From NCBI GenBank assembly GCA_009782975.1, contig WRIA01000065.1, positions 1 to 5,187 on the forward strand: DNA of 5,187 nucleotides. The letters are read 5' to 3'. The translations under genes and the position numbers were made by a program. Below are positions 1 through 5,187 of the stretch, in pieces (position 1 is the first letter of the stretch; every line of letters starts with the position of its first letter). The notes beneath the pieces are model-generated. The model made no database searches, had not been told where the DNA came from, and saw only the letters and a program-made list of their open reading frames with translations. The DNA is from Clostridiales bacterium. GTDB taxonomy: Bacteria; Bacillota_B; Dehalobacteriia; UBA4068.

Positions 1-142
1 CCCCGGCGGTGCCGAAGCTGTTTTGCCAGTTATATACCTTTGTACGGGCTGTTACGCCCGGATATGTCTTAAGGCCGTTTACGGTGAAGTAGCCCGGTTT
101 TTCCACAGCTCCGGTTATGGTAAGTTCGGCGGTGGCCGCCGT
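1..142 (-). other. Start of a further module, M8 (residue 1682 to the window edge)
   Basis: AELTITGAVEKPGYFTVNGL is a typical first strand and 'tV-xL' turn of an Oxidored_molyb-like domain (the family form is h-x-h-x-G-x-V-x-x-P-x-x-h-T-x-x-x-L). It is followed by VYNWQNSFGTAG, after which the window ends before the expected Gly-Val-x-Leu...Leu-Leu element. The copy therefore continues below position 1, and so does the gene. Confidence 0.66.
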
Positions 143-3100
143 GGCGTCCCCCACATAGCCCGCGCCGGGATTAGGGGGATCTATCACAGGCGGTAGCGGA
201 GTTAGTGTTACCTTTGTGCGGGCCACGCCGCCGTTGCTGCCGAAACAAACTATACCTTCCGGCGACACATAGACCGACCATACATCGTCAAATGCTCCTG
301 GCGGCCAACTGCCGTTTTCGGAGCAGTAATGTTCCTTTACGGTGATATTACCGCCCGAAAGGCCGCAGCTGTAAACCCCCAGGCCGTTGGTGCCAAGCCA
401 GATATCGCCCCCTGCATCCACAAAAACCGTGCGTATCTCGGGAGAGAACCCCGGTTCTTTGGCGTTTTTTATATCCGGTATAATGTCGTTGCCTTTATAG
501 GCGGTAACTGTGCCGTTAGGGGCAATATGATCCAGCCAGCCGCCATCATTGGCCGGGTCGTGGGCGCCGGACATACGGGTTATATAAACGCCGCCGTCCG
601 GGGCAATAGCTACGGAGCGGGACCAGTTAAAAGCGTTTCCGGATGTAATGGGATAGGAGTTTACCACGCCATCCGCGCTTACATGGGCATAGCTTTCATC
701 CGGCCAGGGCAGAGTGATATTGGAGGTGCGGTAGGTGGTCACCCAGGCGCCGCCCTTGCCGTCTCCCTTTACCGCCCAGGCGGAAACGGTGGGAAGCCCG
801 TCTCCCATTTTCCAGGTCTGCCAGGTGTTTGCCGAGGGAACGAATTTTGTCAGCCCGCCCTCCATGCCACCGTTAAGCAGCGTGTGCTGTGTGGCCAGCC
901 ATACGTTACCGTTTTTATCCACATCTATACCGTAAACGCAATCGCTGGGCAGGGTGGAGTTTGTGCTTGTTTTGTCGTAAAAGGTGAACTGCCCGTTTTG
1001 GTAGCGGGCGAAGCCAAAGTGGGCTGTGGGCGGGGCGGTCTGACTGCCCACGCTTCCCCCCTGAGCCAGCCAGACGCCGCCGTCCGGGGCAATGGCAATG
1101 CCCGTAACAAAATCTGTTTTAAGTGCGGGCGCGGAATACCTTGTTATCTCACCTGAACCGGATATGTAGGCAGCCCCCGCCCCGTTGGAGCCGGCCCAGA
1201 TACCGCCGGCGCTGTCTATGGCGACGGCGCGTATGGAGGCCTGGGGCATACCGTTTGCACCGCCGGGATACAGGGTAAAGCCGTAATCGGCTACTGTTAC
1301 GCCCTTGATATTGGTCAGCCGGTTACGCCAGTTGGAACCGTCATTAAAATTGCGGTAGATGCGGACCGTGGCGGTAACGGGGGGCGTCTGTTTGTCGGCA
1401 TCCTTTACCGCGCTCAGATCATCCACGTTCGGGCCTGCGTCATAGGCTACAAAATATCCCAGGGACTTGATGTCGGACATGGGGATATCGCGGTAATCGG
1501 CCTGGCTGGCCTCGTAGCCGTCCGTGGTGTTTACGGTAACGGTGGCGGAATCGCTTACGCCGTTGGCCGCTAAAATATCGTACAGATACGCGCCCTTTAC
1601 AGCCTCGGTTATCAAGCCCCCCGAAGTATATTTATACTCCGCAAGTTTGGTTCCCATGCCCTGGGGCAGGTTTTTGATAGCCCTTATATCGTAGCTTACC
1701 GTGCCGCCCCGCAAACCGTAAATATTGAAATCCAGCTCGTCAACGGGTTCCACTGTGCCTCCTGCCGCCCCCACCACAATGCTGTTAAGATACTTTACGC
1801 ACCAGCCGGTATTATCATGCACCACCAAGCGCAAAGGCCCGTAGGAATTGCCAATATTGGGGTCAAAGCCGGGGGAGGTTATCTCCGGCACCAAGGGCAG
1901 GCCATTGGCGGAGTTTACACCTTGGCCGAAGGCTATCAGTATAGGTTTACCGTTCACCCCGTTTTTAAGATCGCTGGCATTAAAGGATATGGGGTAATTA
2001 TCAACGGAATTAGCGGTAAAGGCAGAGCTATCCAATTCCGCCGCAAAGCCTATACTTTGCAACAGCTTATACAGGTCTACCCCCTGTATCCAGGTGGGGC
2101 CGCCCATCTGATAGGAATCGGACACTATGATATTATCCATGGCCTCCAGCTCGGCTACGGTATAGGTTTTATTATGCGCCAGATTCTGGCCGGAAACAGC
2201 CAGCTCGAAGCTGGCATACTGCGCGAAGTTACCTCCGGTATGCTTCCAGCCTTCCAAAGCGGCGGCTGCTACTTCTATCTCCCGTACATCGGTTATACAT
2301 TCCGCCGCCGTGCCGTCTGTAAAGATAAGGCGCAGGGGGCCGCCGCTATTGAAATAGGCCGCGTCGTAACCGGGGCTGGCGGCAGTGGGGACCAGCGGCT
2401 TGCCGTCTTGCGCGTCCCCCGTTTTTGCTATGCCGTAAGCCAGTATGGCCTTTTTGCCGGTCAATTCGGCCAGAGTAAGCGTTGTGCTGCCGCCGGAACT
2501 GTTTTTTGCCGTAATTCCGTCCATCAAAGCGCTGGCGCCTATGTCTTTATCGTTAAGCAAGCCTGCCAGATCCAGGCCGCGATAGACATTGGCAACGCCG
2601 CCTATGGTGTAGCTGCCGGTAACCATATATCTTTGTCTGGTCTCCAGGCTGCCCACGGTAATACTTTTGCCGCCCAGCTGGGCCACCGCGCCGGAAAAAA
2701 GCACGCTCTGATTTGCATAGACCTCATATTCCGGGCCTACGTGGGCAAAAACGTCCGGGTCGAGCCGGACCACTATTTTGGACAGGTTTTCTACCAGTGT
2801 TTTGGCATCTCCTACAGTGGAATTTACAGTGCCGGTCGCATTTTCCGCTGCTGTTTGAGCGCGGACGAAATGCAGGGGCCCCAGGCCGTTGCGTATGCCC
2901 TTGCCGGCATCCAGAGGGTCATTATGCACATAGCCGGGGTTGGTGTTTTCGGTAGCGTTATTTGCCCCATCCACCAGGGGAAAACCGTTTTTGGCGAAGG
3001 CTACCATCATACCCAGGCCTTCCGTACCTTTTCCCGAGTTGAAGCCCTTTTCGCTTATATCCGCCAGATCGTATATGCCCTCCGGCGCCGTGCCGCTGCC

Positions 3101-5187
3101 GCTGTACATCTCTACCGTACCCAAAGAACCCTGCAAACCTATTTGCTCTTTAAGCAGATACTCCAGGTTGACGCCCTCGTATAGCTCGTGTATAGGGTTA
3201 GTACCGGCTATTCTGGTTATATAGTAGCCCTTTTCCTGACGGCCTTCGGTATCCCGGTCTCGCTTGCTTATACCCGGCCCGTAAAGTATGCTTTCCAGCT
3301 CCGCCAGTGTAAAGTCATGAACCTGCGTGCTGCCCCCGCTTACTATCTCCACCCTTAAAGCCTGCCGGTTTTTCATATCCTGATAAGCCGGGGCCGGGTT
3401 TTCCAGGTGTGTGGAATAACGGATAGGCTCGCCCACATATACTTCCTGCACGCGCTGTAGTTGCTGGGAGCCGTTGTTGAAGAAATAGGCGTAGTTTTCC
3501 ACCGCATCCGGATCGGAACGGTTCAAGCCGTCGGTCTTGCCGTAGATAACGCGCATGGGGCCGCCGTGATTGCCCAGGCCGCTTTTATAACCGGGCAGGT
3601 TGGAATCCCGCACATATGGATATCCGTTTAACCCGTAAGCCAGCAGCACCGGATAGCCCTTTTTTATCGGGTAGCCGTTGCTGTCCGTTGTCCAACCTTC
3701 TGCCGGGCCTTGATTATCCGGCTGATATTCCTTGGTGGCAAGCTGCGCCTTGGTGGGGCGATCCGTTCCTATATCCAGCGGAGATTTTTCGTAAAAGTAA
3801 AACAGGTTGGGGTCTGCCAGCTGCTTCATGGAAAACTGAGCGGTTATCTGATAATTGTCCCAGGCGGAAAAACTTACCAAAGTGCTGTCGTCGTTCTGAT
3901 ACCTGGCTTTATCCACGCCTATGCCGGTAAGCAGATCCCATACTTTTATGCCTTCGTATTCGTTGACATACCAGTAGGTGGTGTTGGAAAGGCTGTATTC
4001 GCCGCGGTGGCCCAGGCCCTCCGCTTTAGGCCGTCCGTCCTCGTATTCCACCATTTTCTCCAGCTCTTCCACGGTAAAGTTGATTTCCCGGCCCAGCGCC
4101 GCCCCGGTAAAGGTTACTATATATTCGGTATTGACTTTATTGCTGTAGGCGGGGTCGGTGGCCGTGGTATGCTTAAAGCCGGGGGGCGGCGTGCCTTCCT
4201 CTATATAAAGATAAGCCACGCTGGCAAATTTGGGGTTTGCCGCTGCCAAACTTAAAAACTCGCTTTGGTCATAGACCAGCTTAAGGGGCCCGTCGTCATT
4301 GCCCAGGCCGCTAACTATACCCGCGGCAAGGTTGAACACAAAAGGCGCGGGGGGTATAGCGGTTTCATCCGTGCTGGCGGTGCCGTAAGCCATTATCACC
4401 GGCTTTTCGGCGTTTTTGATATCCGCGTAAGCCGCCCGGCCTACCTCCTGCCGCCAGCGGTTCTTAAATACCACCACCACATCATCGTCAAGCCGCTCCA
4501 CCTGCGCGTTTATCAGGCCATCCAGTATGGAAAGAAGCTTTACACCCTCGTAGCTAAAGCTTACGCTGCCGCTGCCCCGGCTGTCGCTGTAAACGTCCCG
4601 GTGTATATTGGCGCTTGCCGCTTCTTCCAGCTCCCGCACGGAAACAGGCACGGAACTGCTTACTCCCGGCCCCTCCACGGTAAGGGTCGCGCCGGTTATG
4701 GCGTCTATGTTGTAGGGCGCGCCGGCGTAGGTTATATGCTTGTAGGGGCTGGCGACCACAGCCTTTTCACTTACGGTAGTTACACCGTGGGCGCCCCCTA
4801 AATCGTCCGCCCAAAGCCGTATGTACGCCGCTGCCTCGCCGGAGGCCGGTCTTACATAGCCTGTCCAGGTATCGCCGCTTTTTGTTTCGTAGGCCAGTAT
4901 AGCGTTTTTTTCCACCAGCTCTTCTTTGGTAAGGTTATATGCCGAAATACCGGCCCAGGCGTCGTAGGTCTGAAACTCTATTAAGGCGCTGCCGCCAACG
5001 TCTTCCAGCAAGGCGGCCAGGGGAACGCCCCGCACGGTAGTTCCGCTGTATGTGCGCTCCGCGCGGGGCATCATCAAAAGCTGGGCCCGGGTGTATTCCG
5101 TACCCATCACGGTAAGGGCCGTTTGCGTTATGGCCGCGCCCAGCCGCAAACTCTGCACATTGCTTACAAAATTGCTGTTATTTACAT
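1..5187 (-). CDS. Giant modular surface/secreted protein with tandem sulfite-oxidase-fold-like modules and a beta-propeller (partial at both ends)
   Basis: One reverse-strand frame stays open across the whole window, giving 1,728 codons with no stop, start or frameshift. The N-terminus lies beyond 5187 and the C-terminus below 1. ATG or GTG codons near the upstream edge (GTG residue 10, ATG residue 27) sit inside a module and are not credible starts. Domain order: tail of a module (1-16), M1 (17-148), flavinylation-type motif DAITGAT (161-167), M2 to 335, M3 (340-588), M4 (589-815), M5 (816-974), M6 (975-1143), M7 (1144-1298), seven-bladed propeller (1299-1660), Pro-rich linker, and the start of another module (1682 on). 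The modules resemble the Oxidored_molyb (sulfite oxidase) fold. Only six Cys are present, all after residue 962. No signal peptide, membrane segment or anchor is inside the window; export is inferred from composition and architecture. The function is not known to me; a redox or ligand-binding role outside the membrane is an inference. The open frame is certain, the function is not. Confidence 0.93.
143..205 (-). other. Proline-rich interdomain linker (residues 1661-1681)
   Basis: Residues 1661-1681 include TPLPPVIDPPNPGAG, with six prolines in fifteen residues. Such a stretch is typical of extended spacers between folded extracellular domains. It separates the propeller from the next module. 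Confidence 0.65.
206..1291 (-). other. Seven-bladed beta-propeller, two-component-regulator-propeller type (residues 1299-1660)
   Basis: Seven copies of the blade signature 'h-x-x-h-x-h-D-x-x-G-x-h-W-h-x-(T/S)-x-x-G' occur in series. Their centres are GGIWAGSNGAG (1327-1337), GGVWLAQGG (1369-1377), GNVWLATQH (1426-1434), GGAWVTTYR (1478-1486), GGVYITRMS (1531-1539), GDIWLGTNGLGVY (1593-1605) and GIVCFGSNGGVA (1644-1655). Each is preceded by a strand such as IRAVAIDSA or VTGIAIAPD, and most are followed by a sheet ending in h-x-x-Y. The pattern is that of the Reg_prop family (PF07494), usually found as the extracytoplasmic sensing part of hybrid sensor kinases and in secreted proteins. Here it sits inside a chain of modules with no kinase in sight. 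Blades 2-5 carry longer loops. A role in ligand or partner binding is inferred. Confidence 0.8.
1292..1756 (-). other. Module M7, degenerate sulfite-oxidase-fold-like domain (residues 1144-1298)
   Basis: LDFNIYGLRGGTVSYDIRAI opens the module (h-x-h-x-G-x-x-x-x-h-s-h-x-x-h). A loop with LPQGMGTKLAEYKYTS leads to VKGAYLYDILAANGV (1196-1210). TVTVNTTDGYEASQADYRDI follows (strand plus the 'DGY' turn common in this family), then SLGYFVAYDAGPNVDD, an eroded AYG strand. The GPLRL strand is replaced by ATVRIYRNF, and NWRNRLTNIKGVTV closes the module with the usual W...L-x-x-I-x-x-V-x-V pattern. It has no Cys. It directly precedes the propeller with almost no linker. Confidence 0.62.
1757..2263 (-). 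other. Module M6, sulfite-oxidase-fold-like domain (residues 975-1143)
   Basis: This is the copy with the clearest C-terminal half. SFELAVSGQNLAHNKTYTVA (992-1011) gives the first strand and turn, with AELEAM as the helix. WIQGVDLYKLLQSIGF (1032-1047) is the Gly-h-x-Leu-x-x-Leu-Leu element. GKPILIAFGQGVN...GLPLVPE corresponds to the family's LLAYEMNGEPLP region. YGPLRLVVHDNTGWCVKYLN (1115-1134) matches the classical pattern GPLRLVVPG-YG-x-x-VKWL almost position by position. C1129 is just before VKYL and is again not the Mo-ligand position. This module is the best single argument for assigning the repeat family. Confidence 0.74.
2264..2740 (-). other. Module M5, sulfite-oxidase-fold-like domain (residues 816-974)
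   Basis: The module runs VLFSGAVAQLGGKSITVGSL (first strand plus 'tv-sLe'), then RYMVTGSYTIGG, then YRGLDLAGLLNDKDIG (868-883). LTLAELTGKKAILAYGIAK is followed by DGKPLVP, the family's AYE-NG-PL-P arrangement with a short insertion. SGGPLRLIFTDG (947-958) is a close match to the GPLRLVV strand. The closing strand ITDVREIEV carries C963, the first cysteine of the visible protein. That Cys sits after the GPLRL strand, so it is not at the position of the molybdenum ligand in sulfite oxidase, which lies much earlier in the fold. Confidence 0.68.
2741..3421 (-). other. Module M4, divergent sulfite-oxidase-fold-like domain (residues 589-815)
   Basis: The module starts RYSTHLENPAPAYQDMKN, then ALRVEIVSGG and HDFTLAELESILYG form the first strand and 'tLaEL' helix. 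A charged, Gly-rich loop (SKRDRDTEGRQEKGYY) precedes LYEGVNLEYLLKE (668-680). GTVEMYSGSG starts the next strands, followed by TEGLGMMVAFAKNGFPL (721-737), in which the AYG strand has become VAFAKNG. An Asn/Asp-rich insert leads to NGLGPLHFVRAQ (767-778), where the GPLRLVV strand has become GPLHFV. It ends with NLSKIVVRL. There is no Cys. It is the least typical copy, but the order of landmarks is intact. Confidence 0.58.
3422..4168 (-). other. Module M3, enlarged sulfite-oxidase-fold-like domain (residues 340-588)
   Basis: This is a long, aromatic-rich copy. The first strand is around EYIVTFTGAALGREINFTVE, followed by a Tyr/Asn/Trp-rich stretch (SLSNTTYWYVNEYEG) leading into YEGIKVWDLLTGIGV (410-424). 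SFSAWDNYQIT forms the next strands. A long insert of about 50 residues, containing EKSPLDIGTDRPT, precedes GYPVLLAYGLNGYPY (510-524), a strong match to the family's 'LLAYEMNG-P' strand. GLGNHGGPMRVIYGK (536-550) is the GPLRLVV equivalent and LQRVQEVYVGEP closes the module. It contains no Cys. The insert and aromatic loops suggest a specialised binding surface, which is an inference. Confidence 0.66.
4181..4741 (-). other. Module M2, sulfite-oxidase-fold-like domain (residues 149-335)
   Basis: After the flavinylation-type motif the module has LTVEGPG followed by VPVSVRELEE (first strand and 'dL' helix), then FSYEGVKLLSILDGL (210-224, the Gly-h-x-Leu-x-x-(I/L)-Leu element). A very hydrophobic strand DDDVVVVF follows, then IKNAEKPVIMAYG (256-268, the AYG strand), GLGNDDGPLKLVYDQ (293-307, the family's GPLRLVV strand) and a closing ASVAYLYI. 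An insertion rich in Pro and Ala (PPAPF) separates the AYG and GPLKLV strands. It contains no Cys. Its GLGN-x-GGP/DGP junction closely parallels the same position in M3, and the two also share a 15-base identical stretch there. Confidence 0.65.
4685..4705 (-). other. Predicted covalent FMN attachment motif DAITGAT (residues 161-167)
   Basis: Residues D161-T167 read DAITGAT, an exact fit to Dxx(S/T)GAT, the consensus at which ApbE flavin transferase esterifies FMN to the last threonine in FMN_bind domains of NqrC, RnfG and related extracytoplasmic proteins. The predicted acceptor is T167. What is odd is the setting: the motif falls just after the last strand of M1 and directly before the first strand of M2, without an obvious complete FMN_bind domain around it. 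The residues after the motif are LTVEGPG, which read as the start of a module. Modification also depends on export and on ApbE being present, which this window cannot show. Confidence 0.5.
4742..5137 (-). other. Module M1, sulfite-oxidase-fold-like domain (residues 17-148)
   Basis: The domain opens with a strand around LTVMGTEYTRAQLLMM, the typical 'h-x-h-x-G-x-x-h-T-x-x-x-L' start of Oxidored_molyb-like domains. It continues with VRGVPLAALLEDVGG (51-65), where the family has a Gly-Val-Pro-Leu...Leu-Leu element. Next comes a Tyr-Asp segment ending in LTKEEL and AILAYETKSGD (95-105), equivalent to the family's 'LLAYE-NG' strand. YIRLWADD then stands where GPLRLVV is expected, and a closing strand VTTVSEKAVV ends the module. 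There is no Cys, so the molybdenum-ligating residue is absent. At about 130 residues it is the most compact copy and keeps the most canonical motifs. Confidence 0.68.
5138..5185 (-). other. Tail of a preceding module (residues 1-16)
   Basis: The first visible residues include NFVSNVQSLRLG. This has the same shape as the last strand of the complete modules further along, such as WCVKYLNSIVV at the end of M6 and LQRVQEVYVG at the end of M3: an aromatic, a V-x-x-h core, then alternating hydrophobic residues. I read it as the closing strand of a module that lies mostly outside the window, so the protein probably continues upstream by at least one further domain before any signal peptide. The match is short, so confidence is moderate. 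Confidence 0.45.

What the first reader, a model, noticed from the sequence alone, without database searches (positions are those of the whole stretch)
4685..4705. ApbE-type flavinylation consensus between two sulfite-oxidase-fold modules
DAITGAT fits Dxx(S/T)GAT exactly, and TGAT is the most restrictive part of that motif. Established knowledge: this threonine carries covalent FMN in NqrC/RnfG-type FMN_bind domains and in a range of extracytoplasmic bacterial proteins. Here there is no obvious full FMN_bind domain; the motif lies at the seam of M1 and M2. If real, this would be a flavinylated cell-surface protein in which the flavin is carried at the junction of repurposed Moco-fold domains, possibly for extracellular electron transfer.
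Basis: partly seen in the sequence, partly recalled or inferred. Interest (0 to 1): 0.72.

Follow-up and report, generated by a model that had tools for sequence, protein, structure and literature searches.

The report
Covalent-flavin site on surface protein
A very large cell-surface protein of gut-type Clostridia carries a strictly conserved site that looks made for permanently attaching a vitamin-B2 cofactor, and relatives of its gene often sit beside genes for flavin attachment and electron transfer, so these bacteria may pass electrons across their cell wall with it.

Summary
In detail: DAITGAT is encoded at 4685-4705, minus strand, inside one 1,728-aa ORF that fills the window. It is not chance: residues 161-175 are the most conserved 15-mer found, and Thr167 is unchanged in 108 of 108 sequences covering M1-M2 and 120 of 120 lipoprotein-type relatives. 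The Gly is looser (Ser in 9 of 108 and 28 of 120), but E. coli RsxD has SQAT at its site. Mere presence of ApbE is uninformative (275 of 297 genomes of one order). Co-location is informative: apbE within 25 kb in 11 of 50 relatives (expected 1.2), another FMN_bind gene within 15 kb in 18 of 50 (expected 1.4). The motif is not a seam feature but the N-terminal cap of module M2; shorter relatives carry it soon after a lipobox. M2 has a sulfite-oxidase/PruR-type fold, and the protein has no Cys before residue 963, so no Mo-ligating Cys in M2. Most likely this is a new class of ApbE substrate: a flavinylated, Moco-less sulfite-oxidase-fold surface protein. Covalent flavin itself is unproven.

The parts
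2..5185 (-). Interior of one ORF, 1,728 aa, open at both ends: giant surface protein of repeated Oxidored_molyb-like modules followed by a beta-propeller; many listed homologues end in SLH domains, some carry FIVAR or LysM, and full-length ones start with a signal-peptide-like stretch (by eye)
4685..4705 (-). DAITGAT, residues 161-167, candidate ApbE flavinylation motif
4685..4687 (-). Codon of Thr167, the predicted FMN-bearing residue
   Evidence: Thr in 108 of 108 sequences (window included) and 120 of 120 lipoprotein-type relatives
4661..4750 (-). Conserved cap of module M2: S-P-Y-K-H150 ... P-Y-N-I-D-A-I-T-G-A-T-L-T-V-E-G-P-G-V (residues 146-175)
   Evidence: residues 161-175 are the top 15-mer, mean 4.09 bits; kept in lipoprotein relatives lacking M1
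4193..4708 (-). Module M2, sulfite-oxidase/PruR-type fold (residues 160-331)
4451..4465 (-). K-N-R-W-R (residues 241-245); N242, R243, R245 invariant; guessed to line the old pterin pocket
   Evidence: conservation; the pocket role is inference
4751..5122 (-). Module M1, homologous to M2; its own start (G-A-A-I-T-Q-T-A-L-T-V-M-G) resembles the M2 start but is much less conserved
   Evidence: hhalign M1 against M2, probability 92%, E 5e-7; column counts
3815..4126 (-). Module M3, best stretch of Pfam PF00174 Oxidored_molyb (residues 354-457)
   Evidence: whole-protein E 3.6e-12
887..952 (-). Best Reg_prop (two-component-regulator propeller) repeat, residues 1412-1433
   Evidence: PF07494, whole-protein E 3.7e-12

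Best explanation
The window encodes part of a giant cell-surface protein of anaerobic Clostridia whose M2 module is a sulfite-oxidase-fold domain without a molybdenum-ligating cysteine that carries FMN instead. FAD is exported (EetB/ECF), ApbE transfers FMN to Thr167 of the D-x-x-T-G-A-T cap of M2, and the flavin takes electrons from membrane-side carriers (NapH/NosR-like 4Fe-4S proteins, several with FMN_bind, and RnfG-like FMN_bind + Oxidored_molyb lipoproteins, encoded near relatives' genes) and passes them on at the cell wall or surface. Shown here: the motif, its conservation, the predicted fold of M2, the absence of Cys in the first 962 residues, and the gene neighbourhood in relatives. 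Inferred: the flavin bond, the electron path, and the acceptor (an extracellular acceptor, or a metal complex to be reduced for uptake).
For: Motif present and improbable by chance. Thr167 in 108 of 108 and, in a second search with a lipoprotein-type query, 120 of 120 listed; residues 161-175 rank first among 15-mers (4.09 bits; next 4.04 at residue 511). The equivalent positions of homologous module M1 vary (T22 39/108, A23 36/108), so the module fold alone does not force T-G-A-T. G-A-T-L-T equals NqrC G227-A228-T229-L230-T231, named as flavin-pocket residues, with the T231 side chain bonded to flavin N3 (PMC4348036, passages seen); T169 is in 108 of 108. Co-location in 50 carriers under a uniform-placement null: apbE within 15 kb 8/50 (expected 0.75, P 7e-7), within 25 kb 11/50 (expected 1.24, P 3e-8); another FMN_bind gene (E < 1e-6) within 15 kb 18/50 (expected 1.37, P 8e-17); EetB PF07456 within 25 kb 6/50 (expected 1.18, P 0.001) and within 15 kb 3/50 (P 0.03). 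apbE lies directly upstream on the same strand in L005, L013 and L064. NapH/NosR-like Fer4_5 proteins stand in 10 of 73 loci; of the two scanned, L066 has FMN_bind and L064 has not. apbE with PF07456 in L132-L135, NusG_II in three of the four. A partner lipoprotein models as RnfG/NqrC fold plus PruR fold. In G009, G024 and G025 the FMN_bind profile reaches its cut-off inside the surface gene itself (profile 12-67 at most; two of the three only when neighbouring matches are added).
Against: Gly165 is Ser in 9 of 108 and 28 of 120 and Cys or Thr in single cases, including some of the closest relatives (P0002, P0003, P0004); Gly to Ala gave about 50% flavinylation in one enzyme (PMC12052999, passage seen). 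Conservation runs past the ApbE motif (L-T-V-E-G-P-G), so a structural reason is possible. In the model Thr167 begins a beta-strand rather than a helix. A profile of the linker meets neighbours' FMN_bind domains only over 16 motif columns (probability 77%). apbE was within 25 kb in only 11 of 50 carriers; of the other 39, three show no apbE, one (G044) has it on the same contig some 59 kb away, and in the rest it lies on other contigs. The co-location null ignores kinship of the genomes, and apbE and EetB lie together in several loci anyway, so these tests are not independent. No covalent flavin has been shown, and the window's own genome is not held.
Confidence: 0.72

Rival explanations
1. 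Structural motif only: D-A-I-T-x-x-x-L-T-V-x-G is a module start (a turn, then strand 1), and M2 happens to read G-A-T; no flavin is attached.
For: M1 starts with G-A-A-I-T-Q-T-A-L-T-V-M-G at the same spacing and is homologous; T167 starts a strand; E-G-P-G is as conserved as the ApbE part, and G165 is looser than its neighbours.
Against: The same positions in M1 vary; Thr167 is kept in all 228 sequences of the two sets, window included; relatives' genes cluster with apbE, FMN_bind and EetB above chance.
Confidence: 0.17
2. Vestigial or altered site: an ancestral FMN_bind/SUOX protein lost most of the flavin domain, and SAT lineages, perhaps this one too, no longer carry flavin; electrons run only through the neighbouring FMN_bind proteins.
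For: Ser at the Gly position in 28 of 120 lipoprotein relatives (27 TSAT, 1 SSAT); partial FMN_bind profile matches inside some members; neighbouring fusion proteins carry a whole FMN_bind domain.
Against: The Thr is kept in every SAT form of both sets; the TSAT member L064 has apbE directly upstream together with an FMN_bind lipoprotein and a Fer4_5 protein; RsxD has SQAT. The window itself has TGAT.
Confidence: 0.06
3. M2 binds a pterin or Moco non-covalently, as PruR binds tetrahydromonapterin, and the conserved cap closes that pocket; the gene cluster serves molybdenum or tungsten cofactor use.
For: PruR is the top Foldseek match; Moco-synthesis and tungsten-enzyme gene clusters lie in some loci (MoaA-like 10, MoaC-like 9, MogA-like 8, MoeA 8, MoaE 7, AOR 7 of 73; MoaA, MoeA, MoaE and AOR confirmed by Pfam on one member each, MoaC and MogA named by eye); PruR also lacks the Mo-ligating Cys (PMC13259868, passages seen).
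Against: Does not explain the T-G-A-T triad or the apbE/FMN_bind co-location; Moco genes were not seen in most of the 73 loci.
Confidence: 0.05

Closest known systems
FMN_bind domain proteins (PF04205: NqrC, RnfG, NosR/PceC)
   Same: D-x-x-[ST]-G-A-T followed by L-T, as in NqrC GATLT; extracytosolic; apbE and NapH/NosR-like genes near relatives
   Different: No FMN_bind hit over threshold in the window; Thr starts a strand instead of a helix; no ETPGLG stretch (reading of the sequence)
ApbE substrates without FMN_bind (DUF2271, DUF3570, Flavodoxin_4, FMN_red; PMC8238504 and PMC11334425, passages seen)
   Same: A motif in an unrelated fold, with apbE nearby in part of the genomes
   Different: DUF2271 and DUF3570 were shown flavinylated by co-expression; for the other two the passages seen tell of the co-expression test and of an expanded repertoire. 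Here the fold is sulfite-oxidase-like and no test exists
PruR and sulfite-oxidase family (PF00174)
   Same: Fold of M2; PruR likewise lacks the Mo cysteine
   Different: Multi-module giant protein with propeller and, in homologues, SLH; T-G-A-T cap; no pterin evidence
Listeria flavin-based extracellular electron transfer (ApbE/FmnB, EetB, PplA; PMC9973259, passages seen)
   Same: apbE with EetB (PF07456) and, in some loci, NusG_II in the same gene region
   Different: No PplA-like carrier was looked for; carriers seen here are FMN_bind + Oxidored_molyb lipoproteins and this surface protein
Large unannotated SLH/Rib/FIVAR/LysM proteins in multi-flavinylated gene clusters (PMC8238504, section 18 read)
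   Same: Possibly the same proteins: homologues here carry SLH, PF07554 or PF01476
   Different: That section does not give these proteins a flavinylation site of their own or a sulfite-oxidase fold; identity was not checked (figures and supplements not seen)

Membership tests
ApbE flavinylation substrate | D-x-x-[ST]-G-A-[ST] motif | tested here: met
   DAITGAT; motif as in PMC12052999 (passage seen)
ApbE flavinylation substrate | acceptor Thr/Ser conserved among homologues | tested here: met
   108/108 and 120/120
ApbE flavinylation substrate | extracytosolic location | tested here: inconclusive
   homologues only: signal-peptide-like starts by eye, lipobox-like pattern in 101 of 120, SLH ends; the window lacks both ends
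ApbE flavinylation substrate | apbE in the same genome or cluster | tested here: inconclusive
   window genome not held; carriers 47/50 but background 275/297 and 19/22; 11/50 within 25 kb
ApbE flavinylation substrate | covalent FMN on the Thr | not testable with these tools
   needs protein chemistry
FMN_bind (PF04205) | profile match over the gathering score | tested here: not met
   13.7 bits against 22, profile 50-67 of 77; reached in three relatives' genes, partial
FMN_bind (PF04205) | NqrC/RnfG fold | tested here: inconclusive
   no NqrC/RnfG row among the 50 rows shown of 123 Foldseek matches of the window model, while the control model shows them
Sulfite oxidase/YedY Moco enzymes | SUOX fold | tested here: met
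   M2, predicted model:
Sulfite oxidase/YedY Moco enzymes | Mo-ligating cysteine in the module | tested here: not met
   no Cys before residue 963, so none in M1-M3
EetB/ApbE extracellular electron transfer system | EetB (PF07456) and apbE clustered with the flavoprotein | tested here: inconclusive
   EetB within 25 kb in 6/50 carriers; not known for the window

The most novel reading that the evidence does not exclude
A covalent flavin sits in the vacated pterin pocket of a sulfite-oxidase fold: evolution swapped a molybdopterin for a tethered isoalloxazine (itself a benzopteridine) by adding an ApbE motif at the pocket-side start of strand 1, and strung this module into a surface protein that relays electrons across the Gram-positive wall.
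Probability: 0.33. Interest if true: 0.82.

Novelty: new variant of a known kind. Interest (0 to 1): 0.62.

Why it matters
It would add a new fold to the short list of ApbE substrates, give a function to a family of very large, mostly unnamed surface proteins of gut and other anaerobic Clostridia, and show a Moco fold reused as a flavin carrier. It names one residue (Thr167) and one assay (in-gel flavin fluorescence with ApbE) that decide it. It also bears on how bacteria could move electrons through a thick wall by flavins.

Tried and rejected
ApbE presence in the genome as evidence: rejected, because it is nearly universal in the background. Homology of the linker to a full FMN_bind domain: hhalign against an alignment of neighbours' FMN_bind domains matched only 16 motif columns, probability 77%. 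Profile A1 against solved structures by sequence: no hit at E <= 1. M2 against E. coli MsrP by hhalign: probability 0.1, so the Cys position could not be aligned residue by residue; absence of Cys was used instead. Short relatives: only 10 hits, which nevertheless revealed the lipoprotein form. Self-BLAST for module repeats: no hit besides identity. The shown Foldseek and VIA-align rows for the window model contain no NqrC/RnfG chain; absence there is not proof. Paper searches for this protein type: 'flavinylated / S-layer homology / extracellular electron transfer / molybdopterin' (3 papers listed), 'ApbE / flavinyl / Oxidored_molyb / sulfite oxidase-like / YedY-like' (1 paper listed), 'FMN-binding domain / SLH domain / molybdopterin / extracellular electron transfer / Clostridia' (none); by title and abstract start none of the four is about it, and I did not open them. 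These searches cover open-licence PubMed Central papers only. The 2021 survey (PMC8238504) has 0 occurrences of 'molybdopterin' and 'sulfite oxidase' in its main text.

Limits of the counts. Of 372 homologues 120 were listed and 108 covered M1-M2; of 294 in the second search 120 were listed. The genome scan used the patterns ATLT[VI]EGPG and N[DGE]DG[CP]x[KR][LV]V[YF], so motif presence in its 73 loci is partly by construction. Motif states there: TGAT 51, TSAT 7, SGAT 2, TGST 1, TTAT 1, not recognised 11; of the 11, six have TGAT followed by Met, and L056, L059, L070, L071 and L073 were not resolved. Profile-found distant members include two SSAT forms (L109, L110). Neighbour families are single-linkage clusters named from Pfam scans of one or a few members each, or by eye. 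My first FMN_bind list left out some rows; one search repeats the test with the rows outside the family gene: 18/50 within 15 kb for E < 1e-6 and 24/50 (expected 1.54) with the weak rows. The null assumes uniform placement and ignores kinship.
Full report
WHAT IS THERE. The window is the inside of one minus-strand ORF of 1,728 codons, open at both ends. DAITGAT is residues 161-167, at 4685-4705. Shuffling the protein gives 0.028 matches to D..[ST]GA[ST] per protein, and this is the only one. Pfam finds Oxidored_molyb and Reg_prop over threshold and FMN_bind below it, the last matching just the motif end of the profile. No whole genome is held for the window.

RELATIVES. 372 homologues were found at E <= 1e-5 and 120 listed (window included), 1,275-3,015 aa; those with names are Clostridia and kin, mostly metagenome-assembled; many carry SLH domains, a few FIVAR or LysM. 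The closest genome contigs come from MAGs labelled Nt197P3 or Th196P4, which I take from the labels, by memory, to be termite-gut samples. In the 108 that cover M1-M2, 96 read D..TGAT, 9 D..TSAT, 1 D..TGST, 1 D..TCAT and 1 S..TGAT; T164, T167, T169, E171, G172, P173 and H150 are in 108 of 108. By information content residues 161-175 are the best 15-mer (4.09 bits), just ahead of residues 511-525 (4.04).

THE GLYCINE. Several of the nearest relatives read TSAT. A second search, with a 1,006-aa lipoprotein-type relative from Flavonifractor, gave 120 listed of 294: 90 TGAT, 27 TSAT, 1 SSAT, 1 SGAT, 1 TGST, all with the Asp and all with the last Thr. More distant members have SSAT or TTAT. This is the main evidence against a strict ApbE reading. 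Two things soften it: E. coli RsxD has D-G-I-S-Q-A-T ending at residue 187, which I recall as the FMN threonine of RnfD (the paper on Clostridium tetanomorphum names Thr153 in its RnfD, PMC9588780, passages seen); and a review reports about half flavinylation for Gly to Ala (PMC12052999, passage seen). One TSAT member, L064, has apbE directly upstream, together with an FMN_bind lipoprotein and a 4Fe-4S membrane protein (the FMN_bind match of the lipoprotein is, G046:C64:8831).

NOT A SEAM. Ten short relatives include lipoprotein-like sequences (P0123, P0125, P0126, P0128, P0130) with a lipobox, then YKH-NNGG-PYNVDAIT[GS]ATLTVEGPGV and M2, with no M1; longer ones do the same. In 105 sequences where all three landmarks were recognised, the Thr lies 42-59 residues after the lipobox Cys, median 51. 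So the motif is the N-terminal cap of M2. M1 is homologous to M2 (hhalign probability 92%) and starts with a similar string, but there the equivalent columns vary (T22 39/108, A23 36/108). At the M2-M3 seam the window reads NTEYIVTFTG instead.

GENE NEIGHBOURHOOD. 73 loci were fetched, many cut short by contig ends. In them: ABC ATPase in 48 loci, PF01497 binding protein 30, FecCD permease 29, NapH/NosR-like Fer4_5 proteins 10, ExbB-like 9, apbE 4, plus ECF transporter and Moco-synthesis genes. Pfam confirmed FMN_bind + PF00174 fusion proteins in four scanned loci (L001, L013, L031, L136), and similar sequences stand in others. In L005 and L013 the order is fusion lipoprotein, apbE, surface protein; in L064 FMN_bind lipoprotein, Fer4_5 membrane protein, apbE, surface protein. 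Whole-genome positions for 50 of the 73 carriers: apbE within 15 kb in 8 of 50 (expected 0.75, P 7e-7) and within 25 kb in 11 (expected 1.24, P 3e-8); another FMN_bind gene (E < 1e-6) within 15 kb in 18 of 50 (expected 1.37, P 8e-17). EetB (PF07456), reported as the FAD-export subunit for Listeria flavinylation (PMC9973259, passages seen), lies within 25 kb in 6 of 50 (expected 1.18, P 0.001). In L132, L133, L134 and L135 apbE and PF07456 are close together, with NusG_II in three. Mere presence says nothing: apbE is in 47 of 50 carriers, but also in 275 of 297 and 19 of 22 genomes of two orders.

HOW IT WOULD WORK. FAD leaves the cell through an ECF/EetB exporter; ApbE moves FMN to Thr167; 4Fe-4S membrane proteins and FMN_bind lipoproteins pass electrons to the flavin on M2; the surface protein hands them to an acceptor. 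The acceptor is open: the loci with FecCD/PF01497 suggest reductive uptake of a metal or metal complex, those with NapH/NosR-like proteins a respiratory or extracellular acceptor. Every step after the motif is inferred.

NOVELTY. Motifs in non-FMN_bind folds found beside apbE are a known kind (DUF2271, DUF3570, Flavodoxin_4, FMN_red; PMC8238504 and PMC11334425, passages seen). The 2021 survey notes large unannotated SLH, Rib, FIVAR or LysM proteins in multi-flavinylated gene clusters (section 18 read), perhaps these very proteins; the text seen does not describe a sulfite-oxidase fold or a flavin site in them. I rate it a new variant of a known kind.

Noticed in passing
L012-L030 and L041-L065, many of them: A FecCD permease, PF01497 binding protein and ATPase sit directly downstream of the surface gene in many loci, in some with an ExbB-like proton channel, suggesting redox-linked uptake of a metal or cofactor.
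   Followed up: partly
L043, L045-L049, L053: The lipoprotein-type surface gene is followed by MoaA, MoaE, MogA, two MoeA-like genes and MoaC (not every gene in every locus), in most of these with XdhC upstream: a Moco-synthesis operon beside a Moco-fold protein.
   Followed up: no
L001:2461-3543, L013:6029-7042, L031:15357-16985: Proteins that fuse a complete FMN_bind domain to an Oxidored_molyb module; the L013 one models as RnfG/NqrC fold plus PruR fold.
   Followed up: partly
L069:16835-17497 and 36 more ORFs in 21 loci: Often paired lipoprotein-like proteins; the one scanned has no Pfam match. They look rhodanese-like by eye.
   Followed up: no
window aa 408-563: Sub-threshold NCBIfam match to 'GEGP motif-containing diheme protein' (E 7.9e-7, 28.6 bits against a cut-off of 300); perhaps only the shared module fold.
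   Followed up: no
H150 and H339 of the window protein (window 4736-4738 and 4169-4171): Invariant His in Y-K-H and G-F-K-H at two successive module starts (108 of 108 each); role unknown.
   Followed up: no
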